Shown here: positions 43,119-61,171 of the stretch, one piece after another | Position numbering within the stretch: the stretch's first letter is position 1 | Layout of the letters: each line of letters opens with the position of its first letter | Assembly: GCA_021806235.1 (NCBI GenBank) | Contig: JAJZXU010000026.1 | Coordinates: 62,001-126,000, forward strand | DNA: 64,000 nt | Source of the DNA: Thermoplasmata archaeon | Lineage (GTDB): Archaea; Thermoplasmatota; Thermoplasmata; Thermoplasmatales; Thermoplasmataceae | Direction: 5' to 3' | The notes under the pieces: model-generated | The model's input: only the letters and a program-made list of their open reading frames with translations | The model's database searches: none | What the model was told of the DNA's origin: nothing | Translations under genes and position numbers: made by a program

Positions 43119-44876
43119 ATGAAAGATCATACAGTTGATGATTTGTTAAAATTTAAAAATATAGAAAATGTAATTATAAATAATTCAGGTGCGGAAATAG
43201 CAGCCTTGGTTTCTGATTCATATAAAGAATATAAAAATAAAAATTATAAAAAATATATTTATATTTATGATCTGAATTTAAATCTAAAAAACAGAATAGA
43301 GGGCCATGGATTAGGATCAGTAAATTACTCTCATGATGGCAGATTATTATATGTTGAGGATAATTTAATAAATATAATAGATGGCAGTAATAAATTTACA
43401 GTAAAATTTGATGGCAAAATCGATGAAGCAAAATGGTTAAAGGATAATATATTATTTTCAGCAGCATTAAATAATAATGAAAAAGAGGATGATGCGTATT
43501 TCTTTGAGGAAAGTGATTTGCTTAATGAATTATATTTATTAGATTTTAAAAATGGAATTAAAAAAATAACTAAAGGTATCAGCATTTTTGAATTCGACAA
43601 CTATGATGATAATATATATGCATTAACATCGAATTGTCCGCAGGAGAGCTGCTGGTATAAATCAAAATTATCAAAAATAGCCCTAGATGGAAGTATAAAA
43701 GAGATCTATGACCCCAAATTCAGGCAGATTGGAAAATTAAGGGCATATAAAAACAAAATAGCTTTTTTAGAGTCTATTATGAGCGATCGCGGTGTTATTT
43801 CAGGAGATGTAATACTAATTGATAACAATAATATAAAAAATTTAACCGAAAATTCCGGTAGTACATATTCACACATAGAATTTTACAGTGATGATATCTA
43901 CGTTCTGGAAAACCAAATGGCAGAATTTAGAATAAAGAATTTAGGCAGTAACAAAATAATATGGGGGGGCTCAGGAATAGTATACCCTGTAGTTTCACCA
44001 CAGTTTTCAATGCACGGAAATAAATTTGTATTTTCATATTCCAATGAAAATGAAATAGCTGAAGTAATTTTATTGAACAGTGGCATTAAAAAATCAAATA
44101 TAAATGGCAAATTAAAGGATCTAAAACCATATAAAAATGAATTAATTCAGTGGAAATCTGTAGATAATAAGGAAATTTATGGCTTTTTCAGATCACAGAA
44201 TCCTGAGGATCCACTGGTTGTTTACATTCATGGAGGGCCAACATCATTTTCATATCCTGCTTTTATTGATAGAACAACAATGTATCTCGGATCAGGTTTC
44301 TCGGTATTTTTGCCAAATTACCGTGGAAGTATTGGCAGGGGAAGACAATATGCAGAATCAAATCTGGGGGATTTAGGTGGAAAAGATTTTGATGATATAA
44401 TTATGGGCATAAAATACCTGTATGAGAATAAAATAATAAAGACTGATAGGATTTATATAACCGGGGGGTCTTACGGTGGTTATATTTCCGCCCTGGCAAT
44501 AATGAAAATAGACATTTTTAAGGCAAGTGTTTCATTATACGGCATATCTGATTGGGTAAGCTTCCACGGTGTATCAAATTTATCTAACTGGGATAGAATA
44601 CATATGGATGAAAACCCGTATAATTTTAATAAATATGATAAATTCTCTGCAATAAGGATGAAACATGATGTTAAAACGCCAGTATTACTGATGCATGGAA
44701 TAGAAGACCCATATGTTCCTGTAGGACAGTACTATGAATTCTACAGGTTTTTAAAGGAAAATAATAAAAATGTTAGATTATTATTATATCCCCGGGAAGG
44801 CCATGGATTTACCGAAAAGGAACATATGATACAGCAATATAAGGAAACTATAGATTTCTTCAATAAATATAAATAA
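43119..44876 (+). CDS. S9-family (acylaminoacyl-peptidase-like) serine peptidase
   Basis: A 585-residue cytosolic peptidase. The first 330 residues form the beta-propeller; the last 250 form an alpha/beta hydrolase domain. Ser near 450 lies in GGSYGGY, Asp near 531 in HGIEDPYVP and His near 562 in REGHGF. YIHGGP supplies the oxyanion region. There is no signal peptide. It likely trims short or N-acylated peptides. TATA-like TTTTAATA lies 22-29 bases before the ATG. Confidence 0.9.
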   Translation: MKDHTVDDLLKFKNIENVIINNSGAEIAALVSDSYKEYKNKNYKKYIYIYDLNLNLKNRIEGHGLGSVNYSHDGRLLYVEDNLINIIDGSNKFTVKFDGKIDEAKWLKDNILFSAALNNNEKEDDAYFFEESDLLNELYLLDFKNGIKKITKGISIFEFDNYDDNIYALTSNCPQESCWYKSKLSKIALDGSIKEIYDPKFRQIGKLRAYKNKIAFLESIMSDRGVISGDVILIDNNNIKNLTENSGSTYSHIEFYSDDIYVLENQMAEFRIKNLGSNKIIWGGSGIVYPVVSPQFSMHGNKFVFSYSNENEIAEVILLNSGIKKSNINGKLKDLKPYKNELIQWKSVDNKEIYGFFRSQNPEDPLVVYIHGGPTSFSYPAFIDRTTMYLGSGFSVFLPNYRGSIGRGRQYAESNLGDLGGKDFDDIIMGIKYLYENKIIKTDRIYITGGSYGGYISALAIMKIDIFKASVSLYGISDWVSFHGVSNLSNWDRIHMDENPYNFNKYDKFSAIRMKHDVKTPVLLMHGIEDPYVPVGQYYEFYRFLKENNKNVRLLLYPREGHGFTEKEHMIQQYKETIDFFNKYK

Positions 44877-44996
44877 TCATATTTCAATAATTATTTTTAA
44901 GATGCCTCTACACAATCCTGAATTATGAATGTAGGGGAAACCCAGAAGAAAAACTAATAAAATAATTACAACATGATGTTATTATTTTCATGATTT

Positions 44997-45016
44997 AATT
45001 ACATCATAATGTAATT
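44997..45016. promoter_or_regulatory. Inverted repeat before the AAA ATPase gene
   Basis: AATTACAT at 44997-45004 is a perfect inverted copy of ATGTAATT at 45009-45016, separated by CATA. It sits directly upstream of the TATA-like sequence at 45017-45040 and 30 bases before the ATPase start. A second, shorter palindrome AACATGATGTT precedes it at about 44970-44980. Such a dyad before a promoter suggests a dimeric regulator binding site. Confidence 0.45.
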
Positions 45017-45040
45017 GTTTATATATTATATATAAATACA
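45017..45040 (+). promoter_or_regulatory. TATA-rich promoter of the AAA ATPase gene
   Basis: GTTTATATATTATATATAAA covers most of this stretch, directly before the ATG at 45046. With no ribosome-binding site the transcript is probably leaderless. Confidence 0.45.
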
Positions 45041-45045
45041 TAGAT

Positions 45046-46302
45046 ATGGATTTATCGAACCTTGAGAAATTTAATGGCTGGTGGATCAGCGGTGATGTAC
45101 GGCCTATACTGTTAAAGGATTATAAAAGGAAGGTCTACGATGAAATTGATAAATATATTAATAACAGGTTGATAATTTTATTATATGGGTTAAGAAGAAT
45201 GGGCAAAACTACATTAATGTACCAGTTAATTAATAGACTATTAAAGGATGTAAACAGCAAATATATATTATATTTTTCATTTGATGAAACAGATTATGAA
45301 TTAAATGACGTGCTTGAAACATATCAGAATAACGTTTTAAATAAAACGTTTAACAGCATTGATGATAGGATATATATATTTCTGGATGAGGTTCAAAAAA
45401 TTAAAAATTTTGAAAATAAAATAAAGGTCTATTATGATTTATATCCAAATATAAAATTTATACTATCAGGGTCTGCATCAATATCATTAAGAAAAAGATC
45501 TAATGAAAGCCTTGCCGGAAGAGTAATTGACTTTTATATTGAACCATTAAGTTTTATCGAATTCCTTGAATTAAATAATTTTAGCGTTAAGAAAATAAAT
45601 GAGAACCCGGATCTGTATAAAAATGAGATAATGCCTATGCTGGATATTTATATCAAATATGGATCATTTCCGGAGCTTGCATCAAACCGGGATGATAGTT
45701 ATGCAAGGAAATATATAAAGGAAACTGTAGTTGAAAGAATAATTTATAAGGATATTACAGAAGAATTTAATGTAAATGATTTAAGTTTATTAAGGTCATT
45801 GATAAATCTAATAGCGAATAAACCGGGAATGATGCTAAATTTTAAGGCAATTTCGGAAAATTTTGGCAGGGACCAGAGGACAGTATCAAATTACTTTGAG
45901 TACCTTGAGTATAGTTTTTTAATTAAAATTATTTATAATTACAGGGAAAATATTTCAATATCAATGAGGAAATTGAAGAAATGTTATGCTATTACCCCAA
46001 ATATTATATTTGCATTATCAGACAAATTTAATGAATTACTGCCATATATAATGGAAAATCTGGTTTTAATGAAAACAAAAACCGATTATTTTTACCGGAA
46101 TAACTATGAAATTGATTTTATATTAATAAACGGAAATATGATAAAACCAGTTGAGGTTAAAAAATCTGGCAGGGAATTAAAGCAATTAAAATTATTTATT
46201 AAAAAATATAAAAATATTGATAGACCTTTAATGATAACATACGATACTGAGAATCGTGGTGATATTGACATATTACCGCTATGGAAATTTCTTTTAAAAT
46301 AA
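45046..46302 (+). CDS. AAA-type ATPase with DUF4143 C-terminal domain
   Basis: A 418-residue archaeal ATPase family member. Walker A is GLRRMGKTT at 48-56 and Walker B is IFLDEVQ at 111-117. A sensor region follows as FILSGSASISLRKRSNESLAGR. After a winged-helix-like middle (SENFGRDQRTVSNYFEYLE), the C-terminal DUF4143 domain has a nuclease-like strand order (YEIDFILINGNMIKPVEVKK). This domain resembles PD-(D/E)XK folds. Members are common in archaea, in many copies, with no settled role. It is one gene with a distinctive promoter dyad. Confidence 0.9.
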   Translation: MDLSNLEKFNGWWISGDVRPILLKDYKRKVYDEIDKYINNRLIILLYGLRRMGKTTLMYQLINRLLKDVNSKYILYFSFDETDYELNDVLETYQNNVLNKTFNSIDDRIYIFLDEVQKIKNFENKIKVYYDLYPNIKFILSGSASISLRKRSNESLAGRVIDFYIEPLSFIEFLELNNFSVKKINENPDLYKNEIMPMLDIYIKYGSFPELASNRDDSYARKYIKETVVERIIYKDITEEFNVNDLSLLRSLINLIANKPGMMLNFKAISENFGRDQRTVSNYFEYLEYSFLIKIIYNYRENISISMRKLKKCYAITPNIIFALSDKFNELLPYIMENLVLMKTKTDYFYRNNYEIDFILINGNMIKPVEVKKSGRELKQLKLFIKKYKNIDRPLMITYDTENRGDIDILPLWKFLLK

Positions 46303-46305
46303 AAT

Positions 46306-46830
46306 TTATTTTTTTATAATTTTTAAATTATTTTTATACCTTGTGCAGAATGTATTATAATTATTTTTATAATCAGTCCATAATTTTTTATAATTATCAT
46401 TTATTTTGCCTATAACTTTTGCAGGTATGCCAACCGCTATTGATTCGTCCGGTATTTCATCATTATTTTTTACAACGGCACCTTCTCCTATTGCAGACCA
46501 TGTACCCACCACAGCAAAATCGGAAACCGTTGAGTTCATTCCTATTACAGCATAATCATTAATTCTTCCTGTATGGATTACTGATAAATGGCCAACAGTT
46601 ACATGTTTTCCGATGTAAGTTGTTTCTCCAGGCCTTGCATGAATTACACAGTTATCCTCTATTGCGGAGTATTCATCAACTATGATTTCACCGTAATCCC
46701 CACGTAAAACTGCACCTGCCCCTATCCAGGTGTTGTCCTTTATGGTTACCTTTCCTATTACCGTTGCATTATCAAAAACATAGGCTTTTTCACTAATTTC
46801 CGGTATCCTGTTCTCAAATTCATATATCAT
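46306..46830 (-). CDS. Gamma-class carbonic anhydrase-like left-handed beta-helix protein
   Basis: A 174-residue protein of repeating hexapeptides (VIGKVTI, VIGMNST and similar) forming a left-handed beta-helix. The metal ligands of gamma carbonic anhydrase are all present: His64 in CVIHARPG and His81/His86 in VGHLSVIHTG. Some family members lack activity or act as acetyltransferase-like scaffolds, so activity is only likely. No signal peptide. It converges on the ATPase gene with a three-base gap. Confidence 0.87.
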   Translation of the reverse strand: MIYEFENRIPEISEKAYVFDNATVIGKVTIKDNTWIGAGAVLRGDYGEIIVDEYSAIEDNCVIHARPGETTYIGKHVTVGHLSVIHTGRINDYAVIGMNSTVSDFAVVGTWSAIGEGAVVKNNDEIPDESIAVGIPAKVIGKINDNYKKLWTDYKNNYNTFCTRYKNNLKIIKK

Positions 46831-46962
46831 AAAAAGTTAATAATAATATTAATTTAAATTTATTTATATGTGCGTTTATATTTATGGGTGTAGTTTTAAT
46901 AACAGTACAGGGAAATAATTAAGGCATATAATAATTTATATAGTTACCCATATTTAACTCCC

Positions 46963-47417: not shown

Positions 47418-48380
47418 ATGAAAATTCTTGTGGTTGGTGTAAAAGGTTTCGGTAAAATGCATTTATCTGCAATAAAGGACATGGAAATAAGCATAGTTGA
47501 AAGGAATAAGGATGTTATAAATGATGTAATGGCAAAATTTGATATAAAAAAGGTTTATGATGATTATAATACTGCCTTAAAGGATCATTTTGATATTGTT
47601 GATTTAACCGTTCCACATTATCTGCACAGGGAAATGGCAATAAAGGCCATGGAAAACAAGAACAATGTAATAATAGAGAAACCAATAGCAACAACGGTAG
47701 AAGATGCCGAAGAGATGATAAAGGCATCAGAGAAATACGGTGTAAAGTTTATGGTATCTGATCAGTATTTCTTTGATCCTTCTGTAAGAAAAGCAATGGA
47801 ATTAATAAAAAATAATGAAATAGGCAATGTAAAGACAGTACTGGTAAGGGACCAGAGATTTTTTACACATGAAGGGTGGAGGCAGAATCAAAAATATATG
47901 GGCGGAGGATCATTGATAGATGGCGGTATACATTTTATAGATACATTACTGAATTTTGGCGGAGAATATTCAGATATATACAGCTCCAGCAATCATTCAG
48001 GCTCTATAATAGAAGGTGAGGACAATACATCTGCATTATTTAAGTTTAAAAATGGGATTATTGGCTTATTTTTCTATTCATGGTCCTATGCAAATCCACC
48101 GGAAGTACCGGCATTTGAAATTATAGGAAATAAAGGATCAATATACGAGGATTGCAAATCAAGGACATCATGGAATGTCGACGATAAAATAAGAACTGTT
48201 TATGGAGATTTAATAATGAATGGAAAGAAAATGAATATTGAAAAATATGATGTTTACAGTAAAGAAATAGAAGAATTCAAAAACAGTGTGGAAAATAATA
48301 CAGATGTTCCATTTAATCCTAAACTGGCATTGAGGGACCTAAAAGCTGTATTAACAGTTTATAAAAATAGCTTAAATTAA
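47418..48380 (+). CDS. Gfo/Idh/MocA family oxidoreductase
   Basis: A 320-residue sugar- or polyol-type dehydrogenase. It has the Rossmann start ILVVGVKGFGKMHLSAI and the EKP motif in VIIEKPIA, then the C-terminal alpha/beta domain with GGSLIDGGIHFIDTLL, where the conserved Asp and His of the active site lie. The first Rossmann glycines read GVKGFG instead of GxGxxG, a modest deviation. It converges on glucose dehydrogenase with a four-base overlap. Substrate is unknown, probably a sugar derivative. Confidence 0.87.
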   Translation: MKILVVGVKGFGKMHLSAIKDMEISIVERNKDVINDVMAKFDIKKVYDDYNTALKDHFDIVDLTVPHYLHREMAIKAMENKNNVIIEKPIATTVEDAEEMIKASEKYGVKFMVSDQYFFDPSVRKAMELIKNNEIGNVKTVLVRDQRFFTHEGWRQNQKYMGGGSLIDGGIHFIDTLLNFGGEYSDIYSSSNHSGSIIEGEDNTSALFKFKNGIIGLFFYSWSYANPPEVPAFEIIGNKGSIYEDCKSRTSWNVDDKIRTVYGDLIMNGKKMNIEKYDVYSKEIEEFKNSVENNTDVPFNPKLALRDLKAVLTVYKNSLN

Positions 48381-49453
48381 TCCCATACTATCTTTGTTTT
48401 AATTTCACCACTGGATTTTCGTGTTAATGCATCCTTTATTCTATTTTCATCATCAATTTTTATTGAGTCTGTTATTAATAATTTTTCTATTCCAGGAAAT
48501 AAATGTTTCCACTGTATTAAATGGTTCATTGCCATTTCAAAATGTGGTTTCTGGCCGTTAATTAAACCGGCTATTACAATTGATTTATAAACAATATTTT
48601 GAAGTATATAGCTGCTTAATGTAAGGTCTCCCTTTTTAATAAAGCCGAATAAACCGAATATCCCGTTGTTTTTTATAAAGCCTATTGTTTCGGATATTAC
48701 ATTTGCATTGGATCCAGATGCCTCTATAATTAAATCAAATGTATTTTCATCAAAGCTGTAACCGTTCATGGAATTATAATACCTTATATTTGCAAGATTA
48801 AATATTTTCAGTTCATTTTCACTGGCATATCTCCTATTTGCTATTGTAACATCGAAACCGTGGTTTTTTAATAATAATGAAAATAGTATTCCTATTGTAC
48901 CTGTTCCTATCACAAGTGCCCTGCGGCAGTGAAAAGTATTGTCATTGCATGTCCATATCATCCTTTTCTGTATATTTATTATTTCCTCCAGGGATTTTTC
49001 CAGATCCGATAATGGCTGTGCCAGTATAGCCATGTCCTTTATATCACCGGGTACCTTAATCAGATACTTTTCATCGTCATAGATATATTCGCTCATAAAG
49101 CCCTGCATCCCTTTTATTCCCGCCTCAATAAAATTTCCCGTTTCACAGTAATCTGGCCTGCCATTTAAACAGTTTAGGCATTTTCCACATCCTCTTCTGT
49201 TTACCGGCATTACTATGTCTCCCTTTTTAAATATAACATGGTCTTCCATTACTGTTCCTATAGCTTCGTGTCCTAAAATAAGATAATTATATTTATACGG
49301 TAGGGCTGCAGAATTTAATTCACCATTTACAATCTCCCTGTCTGTTCCACATATTCCATTTTCTAAAATATTTATCTTAACTCCATTTTTCCTGTAATTT
49401 ACGCGCTTGAAAGTTATTCCAACATCCGGGGGTTTAACAGTTATTGCTTCCAT
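48377..49453 (-). CDS. gdh: Glucose 1-dehydrogenase (zinc, MDR family)
   Basis: Oxidises glucose (and often galactose) to the lactone, the first step of the non-phosphorylative Entner-Doudoroff pathway. The 358-residue protein has catalytic zinc ligands in NGICGTDREIV and LGHEAIG. The structural zinc cysteines are in CGKCLNCLNGRPDYC. The cofactor-binding motif GTGTIGILFSL is followed by basic NRRY, which suits NADP. The archaeal glucose dehydrogenase pattern is clear from the start region. The gene lies next to a truncated sugar-acid dehydratase on the same strand, whose product would normally be the next enzyme. Confidence 0.92.
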   Translation of the reverse strand: MEAITVKPPDVGITFKRVNYRKNGVKINILENGICGTDREIVNGELNSAALPYKYNYLILGHEAIGTVMEDHVIFKKGDIVMPVNRRGCGKCLNCLNGRPDYCETGNFIEAGIKGMQGFMSEYIYDDEKYLIKVPGDIKDMAILAQPLSDLEKSLEEIINIQKRMIWTCNDNTFHCRRALVIGTGTIGILFSLLLKNHGFDVTIANRRYASENELKIFNLANIRYYNSMNGYSFDENTFDLIIEASGSNANVISETIGFIKNNGIFGLFGFIKKGDLTLSSYILQNIVYKSIVIAGLINGQKPHFEMAMNHLIQWKHLFPGIEKLLITDSIKIDDENRIKDALTRKSSGEIKTKIVWD

Positions 49454-49510: not shown

Positions 49511-50542
49511 CTATTTAAATCCCCTTTTTTCCCAACCACTGGAGAATAAATTAAAATCATTATCATTTTCACTGGCGGTATAATCATCTATTTTATTTTT
49601 CAGGTTTATGCCTATACCCGGCTTATCCGGTAATTTTACATAACCATTGTGCACTTCGGGTTTTTTATCAACAATATCATTTACCCATTCGGGGAATGCA
49701 AATTCATCAAACATTTCCTGTATTTTTAAATTATTTAATAGGGCATCGACATTTAATGTTGTGAATGTGTTCAAAGGTCCCTCAGCCTGGTGCGGTGCCA
49801 TTGCTATATTATTTGCCCCAGCCATAGCACCTATTTTTAACATTTCAATTATACCGCCGGTATTTATTAAATCTGGCTGCGCTATACTGATAGAACCTTT
49901 TTTAAACGGTTCTGTAAAATCATAGAATGTTATTAATCTTTCACCTGCGGCTACTGGAGTTTTTAAATTGTGTGATAGTATTGACAATCCTTCGATATCT
50001 TCCGGGATAACCGGTTCCTCAAACCATCCGATATTATCATATTTATCAAGTTCATTACCTATTTTCATTGCCATAGACCTGTTGAATCTGCCATGCCCCT
50101 CTATTAGCATTTCCGTTTTATCTCCCACAGTATCATGCACTGTTCTTATTATTTCCATTGACTTTTTATATTCATCATAGTCTAAAAATCCGGACCCGGC
50201 ACCAAAAGGATCAAATTTTAATGCCTTATAACCTTTATTCACAACCTTTTTTGCCTCTTTAGCCCAATCCTCTATATCGTTTATATTTGTATACCAGCCA
50301 TTGGCATATACCATGATTTTATTCCACACGGGCCCACCTAATAGATTGTAAATTGTGGAACCATAATGTTTACCCATTAAATCAAAACATGCAGATTCAA
50401 CACCACTTATCATGGAAATGTTTATTATATCCCTATTTCTGTTAAACGTTGATATAAACCAGTCATTTATTAATTCCCTTATCTTAAATGGGTCTCTGTT
50501 TATCACAAATTTTTTTATGTCTTTTACGTGGGGCCGGTTACC
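49511..50542 (-). pseudogene. Gluconate-dehydratase-like enolase-superfamily gene, 5' truncated
   Basis: The frame encodes an enolase-superfamily enzyme of the gluconate/galactonate dehydratase type. Motifs include KALKFDPFG, LIEGHGRFN, WFEEPVIPED, AAGERL and APHQAEGP, which are the metal and acid/base positions. The normal family begins with a 60- to 65-residue capping domain. Here homology-like sequence starts only at about codon GGT (50542), as GNRPHVKDIKKF, behind a TGA at 50543-50545. The only upstream in-frame initiation codon is a GTG at 50506, giving a 331-residue remainder. The N-terminal part is lost, so the product is probably inactive. A truncated MFS gene begins at the same place on the other strand. 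Confidence 0.7.
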
Positions 50543-51025
50543 TCACTTCTATACGAGGCGGTACTGTTTGCACCATATATACCTTTAACTGTTTTGGCTG
50601 CGTTTATTACGGACAAAATCGGGAGGATAAATACAATTTTATTAGGCCTTATTCCTACCATAATAGGTTATATTCTTATAATCTTCTTCCATTCTGTGGG
50701 AGATTTATTATTAATTATATTGCTATTAAGCTCATGGATATCACTTTCAGAGGTCCCACTGGTTAGTATTGCGTCTGAACTTTTCCCAACATTTTTAAGA
50801 AGCTTAACTTCTGGACTTCAAACCTCTGCATGGAGATTGGGTTTTATTTTGACGTCAATTATACTTCCAGTTTTACTTATTTCTGTTGGTGTAGGTGGTA
50901 TGTACCTTGTCGAATCTATAATGCTTATTGCAGTTGCATGCGTGTTGCTTTTTATGCTTAAACCACAGGCAAGGGTAGAAAAAAAATCCCTGGAAGAAAT
51001 ATCGGAAAAAGAGCAAGAGGCATAA
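50528..51025 (+). pseudogene. MFS sugar transporter, 5' truncated (C-terminal half only)
   Basis: The first family-like residues are YVGPVTSLLYEAVLFAP and the sequence runs on through DKIGR (the loop after a membrane segment) to the end of the sixth segment of the second half. It ends with a hydrophilic tail rich in Lys and Glu. About 165 residues remain of a protein that should have about 440-480. GTG at 50528 is only a formal start. The dehydratase remnant diverges from this point, so both ends are lost at one junction. The composition looks a little less AT-rich than nearby genes, which may hint at transfer. Confidence 0.7.
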
Positions 51026-51108
51026 CAGGTTTTTCATGGTAGAAAAAAGTTATATAAATAAAAAGTAATTAAAATTACTGAAATTTATCGATAAATTACA
51101 AAAACAAA

Positions 51109-54100
51109 CTAATTTTTTAAGTTCATTTTTAAAAACAGTGTTTTTATTTCAAATGGGTTAAACTGAATTTTATTATCAGTTATGGCTTTTTGTTTATCTT
51201 CTAATATATCTGTCTCATAAATTTTTGTATTATTATTCTTTATCTCAGAATATGCTATTTTATCTGAAGAATTATAGAGCCTTGCTATAATTCCATTTTC
51301 ATTTTCTGATTTTTTTAGGCTTTCAAGTATTATTCTGTTATTTTCAAGTTCCATTAAATCCATAAATTTTCCTGTAATGTTTTTTCCATTTGAATTTTCG
51401 TTATGATACATCTCTATTCTATTAAATATAAAATTAGCATTTTTATATATATTAAACTCACCGGCATTATGCAAACAAACATAAAATTTTTCCTTAAATT
51501 CATATCTATCAGAAAATGGATTTGGGTATACTGGAAGCTTGGCAATACTGATACCCAGCCTTTTATTTATAAAACTATAACCGTGTGATTCTCTTGATAT
51601 TATTGAAAAACCACGCTCATTATTGTTATAATCCACCCATCTCAACGCAGGGAACTCAAAATGTGTTTTTTCATTTTGCCTATCTAACTTTGTGGATATA
51701 TTGCCAAACGGTATTTCCCTTTTAATAAATTCCGCATTAAAATCTGGCCAAAACAGTACCTTAACAAGTTTTTCCCTATTATTTAATTTAATCTTATTTT
51801 CAAATTCTATTATATCAGAATCTGGTTTTATTATAATGTTCTGCAAAATAATAGAATTGTCATCAAATATTTTTTTAATCTCTATTATCCCAATTATGTT
51901 TTTAGATATTATTTTAATTTCAGTCCTTTTACATTCCATATAGTTATCTTTAGCTATGTTTGCTTTGTTTATGTTCCACGCATCAAAATTTGCAGGTAGG
52001 TCATTATATATTCTAATTAAATTGCCTTTTTTAATAATTTTTTTATTAGAATAGAAGAATGACATGCTGCCATCTAAACTTATATTTAATTTTATTAGTC
52101 CATTATTTATCTCATACTGTTTATTTATATAATTTATTTCTACTTTGTTTTCATCGTTAATTCCATTTTTAGCATCTTCCTTAATATTTAAGAATCCAAA
52201 GCCAGGTATAGAACACTTTATAAATTTTCTATTTCCTGCATTAACTGATAGGCCTTTAAGCAAATTCCCATATATTTCTGGAATCTCAATATATCCATTG
52301 AAATCATACTGGCTAGTGTTTATGCCAATTACACCGTATTTTATATTTTTATTATTTGTAAGGCATTTTACTGACAAATCTATAATATTATCCAATTTTT
52401 TATTTAAATCCTCTAATTCTTTGTACATTTCAGCATAGGCATAAAGATATGCAGAACCGGGTAATATATCATGAAACTCGGCTTTTAAAAGTGTGTACCA
52501 TAAATCCTGCATATTTTTTTTCTTATAGGTAGACGGTGCGGAAATGTAGTTAATTGAATCTATAAAGTCCAGCATGTTGATTTTATCTTCTAACATGGCC
52601 ACATATTTTTTTATTTCAAAATTAGTAGTATAAACTCCACGATGATTTTCGAGATAAATTTCACCGTTGTATACTGGCATTTTATTTTTTAATTTTAATA
52701 AATTGTTTATATACATTTCTTCAGTAAATGTACTGATAATTTTAGGTAAAAATTTAACCTTTTTAATAGCATCAAGTTTGATCATCATCTCTATGTTTGG
52801 TCCACCACCGCCATCACCATAGCCATAAAGATATGTCATTGGAAGATCCTTATTTTTAAATATTTTCCATGAATTTATTATAGAATTAAAATTTAAGTCG
52901 CCATTATATGTAGAATTGACTATATTTGTAATAATTGATGTACCGTCTATTCCAGTCCATTGGAAGCAATGAAATGGAAATTCTGTTGTATCGTTCCACA
53001 TAGGTTTATGCGTTACAAATGATTCAATACCGGATTTAATAAATAACTGTGGCAGTTGACCAGAGAATCCAAAAGAATCTGGTAGCCATCCAATTTTAAC
53101 ATATTTTCCAAAATTTTCCATGAAATATTTCTGACCATATAGCAACTGGCGTGCTAATGATTCTCCTCTAACAAGATTGGTATCAGATTCTACCCACATA
53201 CCACCTACGGGTATCCATTTATTTTCCTTAATTAATTCCTTTATCTTATTAAAAATTTTAATATTGTTTTTTCCTATTTCATGATAGTATAATGCAGTAC
53301 TTTGTGCAAATGTAAAATTAAAACCCATATTATAAAGTTTTAGAACGTTTAAAAATGATCTTTCAATTTTTCTAGTGGTCTCTGAATAGGGCCATAGCCA
53401 TGCCACATCAATATGACAATGGCCGAAAATAAATATTTTATTGTCTGTACTGTCTATTTTAGATGCCACATTAAGGTTTATGATATTATTAATGTAATTA
53501 AAAATTTTATTATATTTGTTAGAATCTATATTTTTCATCTTAAAGTCGTCAATGTCGTTATTTAAAATTGGATACCCGTATACGTCAGATAAAAAATCGA
53601 CAGATTCAGGTTTGTCCTTTTCATTGCCCATTATACAATTTAGCCCAATGAACTGTTTCATATTTGGAGATTCAAAAACTCCGGATAGGACGCTAAACAT
53701 ATAATTTAAAATTTTATTTTTTGATTTCATTTCCAATGTAGTTACAAAATTATATAACTGCAATAATTCCATGCCAACCTTAAATAGATTATAATTTATT
53801 GTAAGTATGCATATAGAATTAATTTCCAGTGACCATGCATGTCTTCCGAATAATTCCCTTGTTCCTATATTTAGTATAAACTTGTTTGCAGGGTTATCAA
53901 ACATAGTATAATTATGGCCAGCGTCTATAGCTTGATCTGGTATGCCATCAATTATGATTTCTGCGTTTCCAGATATATCTGCAGACAATAGATATTTAAA
54001 ATTGTGATCCAGTTTATCCAAATTAACTCCAAAGGAGAATGTTTTGATTTTATCCGGTGCCTGGATAGTTTTGTATGGTATACTTATAAGGCCATTTTCA

Positions 54101-54195
54101 GATTGAATTTCATTTATATTTTTTATATCTATAATGCTTAACGATATTATTTCATATATTTTTCTAAATATTACCGGCTCTAAATCGCTTTTCAT
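51109..54195 (-). CDS. Alpha-mannosidase, GH38
   Basis: A 1028-residue glycoside hydrolase of family 38. The N-terminal catalytic domain has GHCHIDVAWLWP at 258-269 (zinc-binding His and Asp), the nucleophile Asp338 in GGMWVESDTN, and WLPDSFGFSGQLPQLF. The large C-terminal beta-sandwich region follows. There is no signal peptide, so it is intracellular and probably trims oligomannosides or glycoprotein sugars. The start at 54195 is preceded by TTTAAATT-type promoter sequence. It is a single gene, downstream of the sugar-transport remnants and facing them. Confidence 0.93.
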   Translation of the reverse strand: MKSDLEPVIFRKIYEIISLSIIDIKNINEIQSENGLISIPYKTIQAPDKIKTFSFGVNLDKLDHNFKYLLSADISGNAEIIIDGIPDQAIDAGHNYTMFDNPANKFILNIGTRELFGRHAWSLEINSICILTINYNLFKVGMELLQLYNFVTTLEMKSKNKILNYMFSVLSGVFESPNMKQFIGLNCIMGNEKDKPESVDFLSDVYGYPILNNDIDDFKMKNIDSNKYNKIFNYINNIINLNVASKIDSTDNKIFIFGHCHIDVAWLWPYSETTRKIERSFLNVLKLYNMGFNFTFAQSTALYYHEIGKNNIKIFNKIKELIKENKWIPVGGMWVESDTNLVRGESLARQLLYGQKYFMENFGKYVKIGWLPDSFGFSGQLPQLFIKSGIESFVTHKPMWNDTTEFPFHCFQWTGIDGTSIITNIVNSTYNGDLNFNSIINSWKIFKNKDLPMTYLYGYGDGGGGPNIEMMIKLDAIKKVKFLPKIISTFTEEMYINNLLKLKNKMPVYNGEIYLENHRGVYTTNFEIKKYVAMLEDKINMLDFIDSINYISAPSTYKKKNMQDLWYTLLKAEFHDILPGSAYLYAYAEMYKELEDLNKKLDNIIDLSVKCLTNNKNIKYGVIGINTSQYDFNGYIEIPEIYGNLLKGLSVNAGNRKFIKCSIPGFGFLNIKEDAKNGINDENKVEINYINKQYEINNGLIKLNISLDGSMSFFYSNKKIIKKGNLIRIYNDLPANFDAWNINKANIAKDNYMECKRTEIKIISKNIIGIIEIKKIFDDNSIILQNIIIKPDSDIIEFENKIKLNNREKLVKVLFWPDFNAEFIKREIPFGNISTKLDRQNEKTHFEFPALRWVDYNNNERGFSIISRESHGYSFINKRLGISIAKLPVYPNPFSDRYEFKEKFYVCLHNAGEFNIYKNANFIFNRIEMYHNENSNGKNITGKFMDLMELENNRIILESLKKSENENGIIARLYNSSDKIAYSEIKNNNTKIYETDILEDKQKAITDNKIQFNPFEIKTLFLKMNLKN

Positions 54196-54668
54196 AAATA
54201 TATAATTTTTTAAATTACTTAAAACTATTCATTATATCCCGTGTTGCCTATGTTAACCCCCAATCTATGAAATACGTAACTCACCTATGAAACAGGCACT
54301 TAAAATAACATAAAACGATATAGCTTATCATCTTTATAGCATTTTAAAATATGCCATAAAACATTGTGTTGCAAGCATAATATGTTAACCTATTTACCCC
54401 TCTGATAAACAATTTCACCACCTATTATAGTCATTTCCACCTCAAGGTTTTTTATTGAATTACAGGGGATGGTAATTGGATCATTTGATAAAACAACTAA
54501 GTCTGCATATTTACCTGGATTTATTGTACCTTTAACATCATCGTCCATTGCAACACATGCTGCATTTGGCGTCCTAAATAGTATCCCTTAATATAACTTA
54601 AACCCGGAGGAATTATAGGTGCTGCTATTGAACGTTATAATGCAATAGGAATATACATACTAAAATAT
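54196..54668. other. Spacer with amidohydrolase remnant and short fragments
   Basis: The 473 bases hold one recognisable gene remnant (54390-54587, listed separately). The rest has no credible gene. At 54600-54668 the plus strand reads as a short hydrophobic frame (PGGIIGAAIERYNAIGIYIL) overlapping the end of the next gene; this could be another transport-protein relic but is not reliable. The promoter of the mannosidase gene lies within the first 40 bases. Confidence 0.45.
54390..54587 (-). pseudogene. C-terminal remnant of an amidohydrolase
   Basis: The minus strand encodes 65 residues up to a TAG at 54390-54392. They include TPNAACVAMDDDVKG, TINPGKYADLVVLSNDP and MTIIGGEIVY. These are the last conserved blocks of the amidohydrolase family 3 (YtcJ-type) metal-dependent hydrolases, which normally have over 500 residues. 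A TAA at 54588-54590 closes the frame on the 5' side and no start fits. The gene has lost its catalytic domain. Confidence 0.72.
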
Positions 54669-55709
54669 TTAGGAAATACTGTGCTTAATTCTATCATATG
54701 GTGAATCCCAATTAATCCTGAATTCTGATGCGATCACCTCAATCTCGTGGATATCGTTCTCGTTCATCTTTATATCCAGTGCCGCTATATTATCTTCAAG
54801 GTGCTCAATCTTTGTTGCACCTATTACAGGTATAATTGAAACTTTTTCTATTTCCGCTTTTTTAATCATCCATGCCAGAGACATTTGAGAAAGCGTAACT
54901 CCCTTGTTTTTTGCATATTCATTCAGTGCATTTAAAATTGGTATGTTGCCCTCGGTAAGATATCTCTCTTTTATCTCAGAAACAAAGGATGCCCGTGAAA
55001 GTTCTGGTGCCCCATTTAAATATTTATCCGTTAAAACTCCCTGGGCTATAGGTATATATGCCATTATGCTCATTCCATAATTCCGTGATATGGCAAATTT
55101 TTCCGGTTCTATTTCCCTTTCTAATAAGTTATATGGTTCCTGCATGGATAGCATTTTTATCCCCATAGATTTTGAAAGCATAACGATATCCTTTACATCA
55201 TCTGGATGAAAATAGCTTTCACCGAAGTACAGTGCCTTTCCCTGGTCATTTATTATCTTAAATGCATTTAACGATTCCTCAATAGGAGTTTCAGGATCAG
55301 GGCGGTGCATATGAAGTATGTCCACATAATCTAAATTCATCCTCTTAAGGGATTCGTTAATTTGCCACATCAAATACTTCTTTGATAGCCCTGATGCATT
55401 CGGAAATTTTTCCATCCTGCCCATAAACTTTGTTGATATGACAATTGATTCTCTGTTATAACCGTTTATGGCCTCTCCAAGTATGCGTTCTGAAAGGCCA
55501 GCATTTTCCGGGTATATGGAGCCATTGTATACGTTTGCAGTATCAAAGAAATTTATACCCAGGTCATATGCCTTCCTTATGATCTTTATGGAAAGTTCCT
55601 TATCTACCCAGTATGGAATTTTTCCGTGCTGTAAAACCGGAAAATGCCATGTGCCAAAACAGAGAGATGATACGGATAAACCACTATCCCCAAATTTTTT
55701 ATAATTCAT
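54669..55709 (-). CDS. Aldo/keto reductase (YghZ/AKR-type)
   Basis: A 346-residue barrel of the larger aldo/keto reductase type. FFDTANVYNGSIYPENAGLSERI carries the catalytic Asp-Tyr, STKFMG the Lys and HMHRPDPETP the His. An ESY active-site loop and the SIIPVIGATKIEHLEDN cofactor loop are present. It is unlike the two shorter reductases in the window. It lies upstream of the ABC importer operon, in the opposite direction, suggesting sugar or aldehyde metabolism but not a proven partner. Confidence 0.88.
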   Translation of the reverse strand: MNYKKFGDSGLSVSSLCFGTWHFPVLQHGKIPYWVDKELSIKIIRKAYDLGINFFDTANVYNGSIYPENAGLSERILGEAINGYNRESIVISTKFMGRMEKFPNASGLSKKYLMWQINESLKRMNLDYVDILHMHRPDPETPIEESLNAFKIINDQGKALYFGESYFHPDDVKDIVMLSKSMGIKMLSMQEPYNLLEREIEPEKFAISRNYGMSIMAYIPIAQGVLTDKYLNGAPELSRASFVSEIKERYLTEGNIPILNALNEYAKNKGVTLSQMSLAWMIKKAEIEKVSIIPVIGATKIEHLEDNIAALDIKMNENDIHEIEVIASEFRINWDSPYDRIKHSIS

Positions 55710-56172
55710 AAGTCGTTTTATTGCATATTAATATAAAAATATTTTTAGAATCTATAACTAATATACCATTTCGTAAATATTTTTCATGCATAATATAATA
55801 ATGCAATAAGTATACAGTATAATAGTCTATTTTTTCCAGTTTAAATCCAGTTTGCTGGCAATGGTAAACCCCCATCAGTCCTATTAGGAGTATTATAATT
55901 ATTATTTTCTATAATAAACTTTTTATTGAATTTTAATGCTAAAAATTATAATTCACTCATTAATATTAAGACTATTTTTAAGAAATCATAAATATTAAGC
56001 TTTAAATATTCTAAAATGGTATAATGCATAATGAAAATATCAACAATATAGTATAATATAGTATATTTTTTGCAGTACATTTCAATAATAGTATAAATAA
56101 TTACGAAATTATGAATAATAAAGTGTGTCTAGCTACAAACATTTTAAATAATACAATCTAATACAATGGAAC
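55710..56172. other. 463-base AT-rich spacer before the ABC importer operon
   Basis: No gene is visible. A seven-base direct repeat, CCAGTTT, occurs at 55836-55842 and 55847-55853. A ten-base tandem unit (AATATAGTAT) occurs twice at 56045-56064. The TATA-like element of the importer operon is at 56141-56150. The region probably holds the promoters of the divergent reductase and importer genes. Confidence 0.4.
56141..56150 (+). promoter_or_regulatory. TATA-like element of the sugar ABC importer operon
   Basis: ATTTTAAATA lies 23-32 bases before the ATG at 56173, which has no ribosome-binding site. This is the spacing expected for a leaderless transcript starting at the substrate-binding protein gene. 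Confidence 0.5.
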
Positions 56173-57732
56173 ATGGAAAACAATCCTGATATAAAACCAA
56201 AAAGTAAGTTATTGACTTATATAGTTATTGTTATTATGATAGCCGCAATTGTTGGAGGAGGTGTAGTATATTACTATTCTACTATACACAAATCATCAAC
56301 AGAAACAATCTCAATTGCTGCTCCTACATATTATAGTTCATCATCTACATGGGAAAATTTCGTTAATAATGCCACAAAAAGTTGGCAAGCGGCCCACCCA
56401 AACGTAAAAATTAAATTTATCGGTCCGTTTGGAGCAAGTAGCGAAGGAAATTATTATACCAAATTGGACCTTTTAACATCTTCAAAATCTACTGCCCCAT
56501 CGGTCATGTTAGAAGATATGTTCTACACGGCGACATATCAGCATGAGGGTATATTAGCCCCATTAAACTCATATGTTAATTCCAGTTTCTTTTCTAATAC
56601 ATACTCTTCTGCTCTAGGTCAAATGACAGTAAATGGAACACATTATGGCCTGCCAGCTACGGTTACTGATACTTTAATCTATTATAACATAAGTTTACTT
56701 CAGAAGGCTGGTGTTCTATCTTCCGGTAATACAACATGGCAGCCAACAAATTGGACACAGATTATGAATGCCGCACAGAAAGTAAATTCAACATCAACAC
56801 TTGCTGGTGTTACTCCACTGAATATTTATGAGGGTGTAAGAGCAGATGAAGCCTCTTCATTCACCGGATTTGAGGGGCTTTTATATGGAACAGGGCACGG
56901 TCTTTATAACTTCACAAATCATAAATGGTATGGAAATAATCCCGGATTAAATGAAACATTACATTTCTACAAAACAGCATTTTCAAAGAAATATGCCACT
57001 TCAGCCTTAAGTAGCACACCCTATGTAACCGTTGGACAATATATGCAAAAAGGAAAATTGGCAATAGGCATAGACGGAAGCTGGATGTATGGCTATCAAT
57101 GGGCACCAGGTGCCCAAAACCCCATAAACAATTTCAGCAAATATATAGGCGTAGCAAAAATACCCACCATAAACGGTGGCGGAAATGGATTTAACACAAT
57201 GGTAGGTGGCTGGGGATGGGCTATGTATAATAACATACCCACGTCGGAAAAACCTCTGGTTGCGTCCTTTATGATGGCATTAGATAACACATCAAATCAG
57301 ATTTTAGTAAATGAACCACACAATGGATTAGCAGGTGGTCTGCCAACCGCAAAAAGCGCAGTCAATAATCCCGGCTTCTCAAAGCTTGTGCCCGGGGCTT
57401 CATATTTGGACACATTTTATGCTAAGCTATTAAAATATGGTAGCTACAGGCCTCCAGTTTCAGGATACCCAACCGTATCATCTGCATTACAAACAGCAAT
57501 GAGTGATGTGGTTTCTGGACATGAAAGCGTATCAAGTGCATTAAGTGCATACGATTCTACCCTTGTAAGCAGTTTTGGTGCAAGTCATGTGCAAAAGATG
57601 TCCGGTAGCTCGCCCAGTATACAGCCATCACCAGCATACTCCAATTATCAGAGCAACAAAAATATACAAACTTTCTTCTACGGATATTTTACTGACACGT
57701 CTATTTTTACTTATAATTACATATTTTGGTGA
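56173..57732 (+). CDS. Sugar ABC transporter, substrate-binding protein
   Basis: A 519-residue extracytoplasmic binding protein anchored by an N-terminal segment at about 14-37 (LTYIVIVIMIAAIVGGGVVYYY). The mature part is rich in Ser, Thr, Asn and Tyr and has the family 1 binding-protein plan: an early WENFVNNATKSWQAAHPNVK, then GLPATVTDTLIYYNISLL and a later VGGWGWAMYNNIPTSEKP. The last 40 residues after the linker (SGSSPSIQPSPAYS) are unusual, ending in an aromatic run FFYGYFTDTSIFTYNYIFW. Another frame there reads as a more normal membrane anchor, so a small frame error at the end is possible. It is the first gene of a four-gene importer operon. Confidence 0.88.
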   Translation: MENNPDIKPKSKLLTYIVIVIMIAAIVGGGVVYYYSTIHKSSTETISIAAPTYYSSSSTWENFVNNATKSWQAAHPNVKIKFIGPFGASSEGNYYTKLDLLTSSKSTAPSVMLEDMFYTATYQHEGILAPLNSYVNSSFFSNTYSSALGQMTVNGTHYGLPATVTDTLIYYNISLLQKAGVLSSGNTTWQPTNWTQIMNAAQKVNSTSTLAGVTPLNIYEGVRADEASSFTGFEGLLYGTGHGLYNFTNHKWYGNNPGLNETLHFYKTAFSKKYATSALSSTPYVTVGQYMQKGKLAIGIDGSWMYGYQWAPGAQNPINNFSKYIGVAKIPTINGGGNGFNTMVGGWGWAMYNNIPTSEKPLVASFMMALDNTSNQILVNEPHNGLAGGLPTAKSAVNNPGFSKLVPGASYLDTFYAKLLKYGSYRPPVSGYPTVSSALQTAMSDVVSGHESVSSALSAYDSTLVSSFGASHVQKMSGSSPSIQPSPAYSNYQSNKNIQTFFYGYFTDTSIFTYNYIFW

Positions 57733-57738
57733 AATGTT

Positions 57739-58629
57739 ATGCAAACTGCGATAAATAGAAAGCTTAATTTCAAAAAAAATGCCATATTTTTAATTTTAAT
57801 ACCAACATTTATTTATTTGATTATATTTTTTATTTATCCAATATATCTATCATTTAAATATTCATTTACCAACATATCATTATATGATATTAGCCATTAC
57901 ACTTATATAGGATTTAGCAACTATGTAGATTTATTTAAAAGCCATGGTTTTCAAAACTCGCTGTACATTACACTATTATTTCTTTTAGTGTCTGCTATAT
58001 TTGGCCAGATGTTCTTGGGCTCAATTATTGCATATTTACTAACAATTACACAAAAATATTTCAAATTAATTGTTACAACAATAATATTGATTGCGTGGGC
58101 AACACCCCAGGTTACTGCCGGTATAATGTGGTACAGTACATTAAGTTATATCCCTACGGGCACAATAAATTTTTTCTTAAGTTCATTTGGTTTTAAATCA
58201 ATTAATTTTTTATCTACAAAAACAGCAATATATTCAATAATGCTTGCAAATATATGGATTGGCCTTGGTTTTTCTATTCTAATATTCCTGGGTGGCATTC
58301 AAAATATTAATCCCAGTATTATTAAGGCATCATATATGGATGGCACTAAACCCTTTACAAGATTTTTTGCTATAATATTTCCACTTTTAAAGAAGAGTAT
58401 TATAACTGATCTTTTATTGATTACGCTATTTACTTTAGGCACATTTACATTAATATACGTTTTAACTGCCGGTGGTCCGGCAGGTTCTACAAATTTATTG
58501 ACAATATATCAATATCATACCGCTTTTTCTTTGTTTTCATTGGGTTTTGCAAATGCCATTGGTGTGATAATAATATTAATAGCTATAGTATTATCTACTA
58601 TCTATTTAAGATTTATAAAGGTGGAATAA
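57739..58629 (+). CDS. Sugar ABC transporter permease (MalF-like)
   Basis: A 296-residue permease with six membrane segments. The EAA-type loop is IKASYMDGTKPFTRFFAIIFPLL, in which the usual EAA is replaced by KAS while the following DG is kept. It follows the binding-protein gene after six bases; GGTGA at 57729-57733 is its ribosome-binding site, which overlaps the upstream stop codon. It is the first of two permease genes in the operon. Confidence 0.92.
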   Translation: MQTAINRKLNFKKNAIFLILIPTFIYLIIFFIYPIYLSFKYSFTNISLYDISHYTYIGFSNYVDLFKSHGFQNSLYITLLFLLVSAIFGQMFLGSIIAYLLTITQKYFKLIVTTIILIAWATPQVTAGIMWYSTLSYIPTGTINFFLSSFGFKSINFLSTKTAIYSIMLANIWIGLGFSILIFLGGIQNINPSIIKASYMDGTKPFTRFFAIIFPLLKKSIITDLLLITLFTLGTFTLIYVLTAGGPAGSTNLLTIYQYHTAFSLFSLGFANAIGVIIILIAIVLSTIYLRFIKVE

Positions 58630-59436
58630 ATGAAAATAACTAAAATATTAACATATACAGTTTTAACGTTACTGGCTGCAATATTTATCGTGCCATTTAT
58701 ATGGTTGATAGTTGAAAGTTTTAGTCCGGTTAGTGATCTTGGCTTTGTTATACCATCACATTTTACACTGGCACCCTTTTACAAGGTTTTAACCAACCAT
58801 GAATTTATTAATTCAATTTATGAGGGTTTAATACAATCATTCGGTGGTACTCTCATATCAGTAATGTTTTCTATAGGTCCAGCATATATTTTTTCAAGAA
58901 AAAAATTTAAATTAAGACTTTATTTGCTATTAAGTATTTTATTTCTAACGGGTTTCCCCGTATTTTCATTATTAATACCAGAATATATATTCTATATAAA
59001 AATTTCATTATATAATACTCTTATTGGTGACATATTATTTTTAGGTGTATTAAACGTACCAATAGATATATGGATCCTTAAGAATTCATTTGATCAAATA
59101 CCACAGAGTATAGAAAGAGCAGCGTTTATGGATGGTGCTTCAAGTATAAAATCATTGTTTTATGTTTTTTTGCCTCTTGCATTACCTATTGTATCAGTAT
59201 TAATCATATTAAATTTCGTCGTTAACTGGGGCAATTTCTATGTACCATTCATTCTCTTATCTTCAAACCATCTACTGCCAATAGCTGTAGAAATTTACAG
59301 TTTTTTTGGTACGTTTAATGTAAGATACAATGAACTTGCAGCATTCTCTATAATATATACAATACCCGCAATAATACTTTACATGTTTTCTCAGAAATAT
59401 ATGATAAAAGCATTATCAGGCGGTATAAAAGGGTGA
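58630..59436 (+). CDS. Sugar ABC transporter permease (MalG-like)
   Basis: A 268-residue permease with six segments. The EAA loop IERAAFMDGASSIKSLFYVFLPLALP is well conserved. The ATG lies directly after the upstream stop, behind AGGTGGA, so translation is coupled. It pairs with the preceding permease to form the membrane channel of the importer. Substrate is unknown; glucosides or maltodextrins would fit the neighbouring glycosidases. Confidence 0.93.
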   Translation: MKITKILTYTVLTLLAAIFIVPFIWLIVESFSPVSDLGFVIPSHFTLAPFYKVLTNHEFINSIYEGLIQSFGGTLISVMFSIGPAYIFSRKKFKLRLYLLLSILFLTGFPVFSLLIPEYIFYIKISLYNTLIGDILFLGVLNVPIDIWILKNSFDQIPQSIERAAFMDGASSIKSLFYVFLPLALPIVSVLIILNFVVNWGNFYVPFILLSSNHLLPIAVEIYSFFGTFNVRYNELAAFSIIYTIPAIILYMFSQKYMIKALSGGIKG

Positions 59437-59442
59437 AAAAAA

Positions 59443-60507
59443 ATGGCCAGTGTTGAATTAAAAAAAGTTGTCAAAAATTTCGGTAAAGTTAATGTGTTAA
59501 AGGATTTAAGTCTTCATGTAAATGATGAGGAGTTTTTTGTTTTGCTTGGAGCTAGTGGAGCAGGTAAATCAACGACGCTGGATATTATATCCGGTCTTGA
59601 TACTATAGATGGGGGTGAAATTTTATTTGATGGTTCTGTTGTGAATAACCAGGGTCCAATAGAAAGAGGCGTTTCAATGGTATTCCAGAATTATGCATTA
59701 TATCCTCATATGACAGTTTACAAAAATATAGCCTTTCCACTTAAGATGTTAAACTATAGAAAGGAAAGAATTCCGGAGATAGTTAAGGAGGTGGCACAAA
59801 AATTAGATATTATCCCATTGCTGGACAGATACCCAAAAGAACTATCTGGTGGTCAGGCCCAAAGGGTAGCACTTGCCAGGTCTCTTGTGAGAAACCCTAA
59901 AATATTTTTGCTTGATGAGCCCTTAAGTAACCTTGATGCAAACATACGGTCTAAAATAAGGAATGAATTAAAATTAATGCATAAAAATTTAGGAAAAACG
60001 TTTATATATGTTACCCATGACCAGTTAGAAGCAATGTCGTTGGCAGATCATATGGGCATTTTGCATAATGGTGTTATAGAACAGGTAGGGAGACCAATAG
60101 ATATATACAGGCACCCACATAATGATTATATAGCGAGTTTCCTGGGGGATCCTGAAATAAACATGTTTTCATATACGGGCAATAACGGGACATATAAATC
60201 TGACGATTCACCCTTTATCTTTAAAATGGAGAATGAGCATAAAAAAATAACGGTGGGTATAAGACCAGAAGATATTTACATAAAAAAAGAAAACCAGGAT
60301 GATATAGAGGGTACAGTAATCCCAAAAACTATAGAATTGTTAGGTTCACACTCTCTTATAATTGGAGAGACCCAGTCTAAGAAGGAAATAAAAATTATAA
60401 CATATATTAATGGCACTGACATTGATATCGGAAAACCCCTAAAAGTTTTTACTAATATGGAAAATTGGAACATTTTCGATGAAAACGGTACAAACATTAA
60501 TAAATAA
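59443..60507 (+). CDS. Sugar ABC transporter ATP-binding protein (MalK/MsmX-like)
   Basis: A 354-residue ATPase with Walker A GASGAGKST, signature LSGGQAQR, Walker B IFLLDEPLSNLDA and the switch in THDQLEA. The C-terminal TOBE-type regulatory domain includes VGIRPEDIYI, as in carbohydrate importers. GGGTGA before the ATG is the ribosome-binding site and overlaps the upstream stop. It closes the importer operon and overlaps an opposing gene by 11 bases at its end. Confidence 0.93.
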   Translation: MASVELKKVVKNFGKVNVLKDLSLHVNDEEFFVLLGASGAGKSTTLDIISGLDTIDGGEILFDGSVVNNQGPIERGVSMVFQNYALYPHMTVYKNIAFPLKMLNYRKERIPEIVKEVAQKLDIIPLLDRYPKELSGGQAQRVALARSLVRNPKIFLLDEPLSNLDANIRSKIRNELKLMHKNLGKTFIYVTHDQLEAMSLADHMGILHNGVIEQVGRPIDIYRHPHNDYIASFLGDPEINMFSYTGNNGTYKSDDSPFIFKMENEHKKITVGIRPEDIYIKKENQDDIEGTVIPKTIELLGSHSLIIGETQSKKEIKIITYINGTDIDIGKPLKVFTNMENWNIFDENGTNINK

Positions 60508-61012
60508 CATTTGATGGTACATTTCCAACTAAATGTATAGCCACAATTCCATTATATTTATAATCTGGTGATTTTATAGAAACATTTAACGCACTTTCAT
60601 TTTTATTTGCTGTATTAAAAAAATTACTGATTGCATAGGGTTTATAGGTACCTGAAAAATTTTTTTGGGGACCACCTGATGCACTATAGTTTTTATAGCT
60701 ATATCCCCAGTGTAAAACTGAAAATCCTGTTGTTGTAACATATATATATTTTACAGTAATGTTTGATCTGAAATATAATGTTACATTGAATTCTGAATTA
60801 CTTATTATACTGTGTGGCATAATTATTTTAGTATAATTTGTATAATTGTTAACGCCTACTTCTCCAAGTTCTAAGTTTGTTATTGTAATGCTTTTATTTT
60901 CAGCATCCAGTTTTCTCTGATATATGTGAAAAATTGAAAAAATTAAAATGAATAGTATTATTATAGTTAATATGAACATGAATGTTCTTCTTTTATTAAA
61001 ATTCATAGACAA
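60497..61012 (-). CDS. N-terminally anchored extracytoplasmic protein, unknown
   Basis: A 171-residue protein with a basic start (NFNKRR), one hydrophobic segment at about 10-28 and a long exposed part with many Asn-X-Ser/Thr sequons. The rest is rich in strand-forming sequence (EFNVTLYFRSNITVKYIYV). It is probably a glycosylated surface protein. No family is recognised. The start could be ATG 61012 or the third codon at 61006. Its 3' end overlaps the importer ATPase gene by 11 bases. Confidence 0.65.
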   Translation of the reverse strand: MSMNFNKRRTFMFILTIIILFILIFSIFHIYQRKLDAENKSITITNLELGEVGVNNYTNYTKIIMPHSIISNSEFNVTLYFRSNITVKYIYVTTTGFSVLHWGYSYKNYSASGGPQKNFSGTYKPYAISNFFNTANKNESALNVSIKSPDYKYNGIVAIHLVGNVPSNVIY

Positions 61013-61171
61013 GCATCTTAATATTTTATAAAAATTTAACTATAACATTTTTATGCCATATTATAGAGACCAGCTAAAAATACAATAAGTGGATATCAAC
61101 CCGTAATGACGTTAAATGATAAAAAACGTTAAAATAGAAATAGTTAAGGATATCACAAATTAATAATGGTT

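What the first reader, a model, noticed from the sequence alone, without database searches (positions are those of the whole stretch)
49511..51025. Head-to-head truncation of a sugar-acid dehydratase and a sugar transporter at one junction
The dehydratase frame loses its family-like N-terminus at about 50542, and the MFS frame of the other strand begins mid-protein at about 50507-50528. Both genes lack their 5' parts at the same spot, within 40 bases. A deletion or inversion between two divergent sugar genes is the simplest explanation. It removes the expected second enzyme of the glucose dehydrogenase pathway here, so an intact copy should exist elsewhere, or the cells have lost it.
Basis: partly seen in the sequence, partly recalled or inferred. 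Interest (0 to 1): 0.66.

Follow-up and report, generated by a model that had tools for sequence, protein, structure and literature searches.

The report
Deletion scar between two sugar genes
In an acid-loving archaeon (a Ferroplasma), one DNA junction has cut the front ends off a spare sugar-acid dehydratase and a sugar transporter, and a glucose-uptake operon is gone from the same place, but the cell's main gluconate dehydratase is intact elsewhere, so this is ordinary gene loss.

Summary
The dehydratase frame (- strand) is collinear with full-length 385-404-aa orthologues in four congeners up to window base 50531, where it loses its first 48 residues. From 50532 the + strand carries only the C-terminal half of an MFS transporter (165 aa). 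The genome is a Ferroplasma-genus draft. The nearest relative (G002) has an intact dehydratase here, next to a GlcS-type glucose ABC operon. In the window genome 8.06 kb (glucoamylase-like gene plus GlcS operon) is replaced by 3.85 kb (MFS remnant plus intact GH38 alpha-mannosidase). The missing 5' dehydratase DNA and the GlcS operon are found nowhere in the genome, so deletion fits and inversion does not. No transposon or repeat marks the joint. The gene lost is not the cell's only candidate gluconate dehydratase: an intact 393-aa gene on contig C17 matches the D-gluconate/D-galactonate dehydratase model far better (632 v 354 bits) and is conserved across the family. The damaged gene is a 36%-identical paralogue beside a glucose dehydrogenase. 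Branch substitutions (13 N: 29 S) show the cut is recent relative to the G000/G002 split, or the fragment is still constrained. Misassembly cannot be excluded without reads. Ordinary; low interest.

The parts
49511..50531 (-). 5'-truncated paralogue of gluconate/galactonate-type dehydratase (enolase superfamily, MR subgroup); first 46-48 residues missing; longest start-codon ORF 49511-50506 (GTG, 331 aa)
50531..50532 (.). novel junction where homology to all congeners stops; no repeat, transposon end or scorable microhomology
50532..51025 (+). C-terminal half of an MFS sugar-porter-like transporter (165 aa from GTG 50528), 5' half missing; no close relative found
51109..54195 (-). intact GH38 alpha-mannosidase, 1028 aa, convergent with the MFS remnant; absent from G002 and G005, 60% identical in G004
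54377..54580 (-). C-terminal remnant that reads like an amidohydrolase (assigned by eye), shared with G002 (L058 from 17794), marking where collinearity resumes
48377..49453 (-). intact glucose 1-dehydrogenase homologue (358 aa), partner gene of the dehydratase in all four congeners
54669..55709 (-). aldo/keto reductase, conserved flank (93-97% DNA identity to G002)

Best explanation
This is the scar of an illegitimate (non-homologous) deletion in a variable sugar-catabolism island of a Ferroplasma genome. The ancestor had glucose dehydrogenase + full-length accessory dehydratase + GlcS-type glucose ABC operon here (shown by relatives). The lineage of this genome carried an MFS transporter and a GH38 alpha-mannosidase beyond that operon (inferred). 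One deletion then ran from about codon 48 of the dehydratase, through the glucose ABC operon, into the middle of the MFS gene, fusing the two 3' remnants head to head (inferred, simplest). The damaged dehydratase, without most of its N-terminal capping part, is most likely inactive; the main gluconate dehydratase on another contig keeps the Entner-Doudoroff route open (inferred from intact sequence and family score).
For: Collinearity with G002 breaks exactly at 50531 and resumes at 54377 (= L058 17794). G002 and G005 carry an intact dehydratase next to a GlcS-type operon that is orthologous between them (solute-binding protein 79%, permease 91%, ATPase 82% identity). F. acidarmanus (G009) has GlcS beside the same dehydrogenase-dehydratase pair. 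So the GlcS neighbourhood is ancestral. The deleted 8.07 kb has no close copy elsewhere in the genome and GlcS is absent genome-wide. The intact C17 dehydratase scores 632 bits on NF040790 against 354 for the intact orthologue of the damaged gene, and C17 orthologues are 48-78% identical across family and order. No IS element or repeat at the junction.
Against: The intact ancestor of the MFS gene is unknown, so neither the size of the deletion nor microhomology on that side can be measured. The region right of the junction (GH38) is not in G002 or G005, so two events (gain, then deletion) or a replacement are needed, or a separate loss of GH38 in G002. The remaining dehydratase codons show no relaxed constraint (13 N: 29 S against 10 N: 24 S on the sister branch, P = 1), which an old pseudogene would not show.
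Confidence: 0.7

Rival explanations
1. Insertion or recombination replacement: a segment (already truncated MFS + GH38) was brought in and replaced the glucoamylase/GlcS segment, cutting the dehydratase at its edge.
For: 8.06 kb in G002 corresponds to 3.85 kb of unrelated sequence here; GH38 is patchy, in 10 of 77 family genomes; the MFS remnant has no orthologue in the genus or family; on the other side of the conserved aldo/keto reductase another segment is also exchanged (ABC2 operon here against a GlcS paralogue in G002).
Against: GH38 and the second ABC operon also occur together in G004 and G081, so they look like resident family genes rather than new imports; no integrase, IS or repeats at the edges.
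Confidence: 0.2
2. Assembly artefact: two strains of a mixed population were joined at 50531.
For: The genome is a draft of 37 contigs; no read data are available; no second assembly holds the junction.
Against: The junction is inside a 176-kb contig with collinear conserved genes on both sides (to G002 up to 50531 and again from 54377); no repeat at the joint that would mislead an assembler; GH38 and the flanking genes are intact.
Confidence: 0.06
3. The shortened dehydratase is a working protein translated from GTG 50506.
For: 331 codons open, no indel against G002, metal-ligand/base motifs IEGHGR, FEEP, AGER, APHQ kept; no excess of amino-acid changes (dN/dS 0.088).
Against: The inherited start codon and first strands are gone; Pfam MR_MLE_N no longer detected; the nearest homologues are all 385 aa or longer; the substitution pattern is equally explained by a recent cut (at most about a third of the branch could be neutral).
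Confidence: 0.06

Closest known systems
Archaeal bifunctional D-gluconate/D-galactonate dehydratase (NF040790; SSO3198 of Sulfolobus solfataricus and PTO0485 of Picrophilus torridus are listed as GAD in PMC2063504)
   Same: Same enolase-superfamily fold and catalytic motifs; paired with a glucose dehydrogenase
   Different: The window gene is a separate paralogue (intact orthologue 354 bits, cut-off 750; 36% identical to the C17 gene) and lacks 46-48 N-terminal residues
Sulfolobus glucose dehydrogenase (PDB 2cd9) for the partner gene 48377-49453
   Same: Full-length match, E = 1.3e-121
   Different: Substrate range not tested
Archaeal glucose ABC transporter with binding protein GlcS (NF040930)
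   Same: Neighbour of the dehydratase in G002 and G005, and of its partner dehydrogenase in G009, above curated cut-off
   Different: Absent from the window genome
Pseudogenes made by deletion between neighbouring genes in prokaryotes
   Same: Two gene remnants fused at one joint with loss of the sequence between
   Different: Nothing that sets it apart; the exact length deleted is unknown

Membership tests
D-gluconate/D-galactonate dehydratase (NF040790) | Score over the curated cut-off (750 bits) | tested here: not met
   Window fragment 312, intact G002 orthologue 354, C17 gene 632 bits; even the C17 gene is below the cut-off, so its assignment is by best family, full-length coverage and conservation
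D-gluconate/D-galactonate dehydratase (NF040790) | Dehydration of gluconate/galactonate | not testable with these tools
   No assay
Enolase superfamily, MR subgroup | C-terminal barrel with metal ligands and His base | tested here: met
   PF13378 E = 1.4e-54; motifs kept
Enolase superfamily, MR subgroup | N-terminal capping domain (PF02746) | tested here: not met
   Found at 17-111 in the intact orthologue, not detected in the window frame
MFS sugar transporter | Full-length (about 12-helix) protein | tested here: not met
   165 aa, C-terminal part only
Deletion-made pseudogene pair | Full-length orthologue at the same locus in relatives, and lost sequence absent elsewhere in the genome | tested here: met
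   Dehydratase. MFS: no orthologue known, so only the partial length is shown
Deletion-made pseudogene pair | Relaxed selection on the remnant | tested here: not met
   13 N: 29 S on this branch against 10 N: 24 S on the sister branch; fits a recent cut
IS-mediated disruption | IS element, inverted repeats or target duplication at the joint | tested here: not met

The most novel reading that the evidence does not exclude
The shortened dehydratase is still made and has a new role, for example as a barrel-only enzyme or a subunit partner of another dehydratase, which would explain its lack of relaxed selection.
Probability: 0.05. Interest if true: 0.5.

Novelty: new member of a known kind. Interest (0 to 1): 0.17.

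Why it matters
It shows one Ferroplasma lineage losing a glucose ABC transporter and an accessory sugar-acid dehydratase while keeping the likely core Entner-Doudoroff dehydratase. It also warns against inferring a missing pathway step from one damaged local gene. The broader interest is limited to how fast sugar-use islands turn over among acidophilic archaea.

Tried and rejected
Inversion: rejected, because the lost dehydratase 5' DNA and the neighbouring operon have no copy elsewhere in the genome. Transposon insertion: no IS element or repeats at the joint; an IS-type transposase does lie upstream of the intact gene in G005. Short family members starting at the same place: the nearest homologues are 385 aa or longer. 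Decay as an old pseudogene: not seen in the branch test. Source of the MFS piece: none found among 84,980 species genomes by pattern scan (weak test), 77 family genomes, 390 phylum genomes or plasmids. RNA families near the locus: none. Literature on Ferroplasma genomes gave nothing on this locus.

Full report
Setting. The window is bases 62001-126000 of contig C14 in a 1.93-Mb, 37-contig draft (99.0% complete, 0.55% contamination). The genus is Ferroplasma: relative G009 has one contig of 1,935,211 bases, the length of NC_021592.1, Ferroplasma acidarmanus Fer1.

Observation. The dehydratase frame on the - strand (49511-50506 from a GTG; open back to 50542) is an enolase-superfamily protein (PF13378, E = 1.4e-54) without a detectable N-terminal domain. 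Orthologues in four congeners are full length: G002 385 aa (92% identical over the shared part), G005 385 aa, G009 and G004 404 aa. The DNA alignment to G002 runs without a break to window 50531 and stops there. The intact gene goes on for 46-48 more residues. From 50532 the + strand encodes the C-terminal half of an MFS transporter, ending at a normal stop at 51025. Both 5' parts are therefore missing at a single junction.

What was there before. G002 has, next to the intact dehydratase, a 520-aa frame with no Pfam match and a 370-aa frame that reads like a glucoamylase (the two may be one gene broken by a masked stretch), then a GlcS-type glucose ABC operon (solute-binding protein 571 bits on NF040930, cut-off 500), then a remnant that reads like an amidohydrolase and an aldo/keto reductase. 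G005 has the same GlcS operon beside the dehydratase, with a DDE transposase between; the proteins compared are 79-91% identical to those of G002. In F. acidarmanus a GlcS operon lies on the other side, next to the dehydrogenase. G002 is the closest relative by sequence (95% over 44000-46906) and G005 is more distant, so the GlcS neighbourhood predates the split and the window genome lost it. GlcS is absent from the whole window genome, and the 8.07 kb from G002, including the lost dehydratase 5' end, has only short 67-80% matches there.

What is there now. Window 50532-54376 holds the MFS remnant and an intact GH38 alpha-mannosidase; similarity to G002 resumes at 54377. GH38 is patchy (10 of 77 family genomes). 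In G004 and G081 it sits next to the same second ABC operon that the window carries at 56173-60507. The MFS remnant's best relatives are about 27-35% identical, so its intact ancestor is unknown. No tandem repeat, notable direct or inverted repeat, or element end marks the joint.

Mechanism. The simplest account is one non-homologous deletion from about codon 48 of the dehydratase, through the GlcS operon, into the middle of an MFS gene that lay beyond it. Shown: the loss of the 5' dehydratase part and the GlcS operon, and the single junction. Inferred: that MFS-GH38 lay beyond the operon in the ancestor, and that one event did all of it. A replacement by recombination is the main rival. An assembly misjoin is unlikely inside a 176-kb contig with conserved flanks, but cannot be tested without reads.

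Age and function. Against G002, the 330 shared codons show 29 nonsynonymous and 67 synonymous differences (dN/dS 0.088), with no indels. Polarised with G005, the window branch has 13 N: 29 S and the G002 branch 10 N: 24 S (Fisher P = 1). If the gene had been free of selection since the split, about 79% of changes would be nonsynonymous (P about 2e-11); no more than roughly a third of the branch can be neutral. The cut is therefore recent, or the remainder is still used. Loss of much of the N-terminal capping part makes inactivity more likely.

Metabolic consequence. An intact 393-aa dehydratase on contig C17 (L092 5905-7086) matches the D-gluconate/D-galactonate dehydratase family over its full length with 632 bits, against 354 for the intact orthologue of the damaged gene. 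It has orthologues (48-78% identical) across the family and order, and a second intact homologue lies on C32. Neither tested protein reaches the curated cut-off of 750, so the gluconate assignment of C17 rests on relative score, coverage and conservation. PMC2063504 lists one GAD each for Ferroplasma, Picrophilus and Thermoplasma, but its gene numbers could not be mapped here. The damaged paralogue itself has no intact copy above 38% identity in this genome, although G005 and possibly G002 keep a second copy. The lost function is thus probably an accessory one tied to the lost glucose importer.

Verdict. Observation confirmed; deletion supported, inversion not; the claimed loss of the pathway's dehydratase not supported. 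An ordinary case of gene loss, of low interest.

Noticed in passing
window 54377-54580 (-): C-terminal remnant that reads like an amidohydrolase (GKYADLVVLSNDPITIPCNSIKNLEVEMTIIGGEIVYQRGK), shared with G002, so it decayed before the split.
   Followed up: partly
window 55761-61120 and L095 674-3143: A second exchanged segment right of the aldo/keto reductase: ABC operon here, a lone GlcS-like binding protein in G002, between the same conserved genes.
   Followed up: partly
L059 9688-10686: A DDE transposase (PF01609) sits between the dehydratase and the GlcS operon in G005, at nearly the same spot as the window junction.
   Followed up: no
L064 (G005:C6) and L065 (G002:C6): Second copies of this dehydratase: one at 74% identity in G005 and one cut by a contig end in G002; the paralogue seems to be duplicated in the genus.
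   Followed up: partly
G000:C32:5263-7712: Another dehydratase homologue lies convergent to an MFS transporter that is the best own-genome match (35%) to the MFS remnant; the same pair occurs in G002:C47.
   Followed up: no
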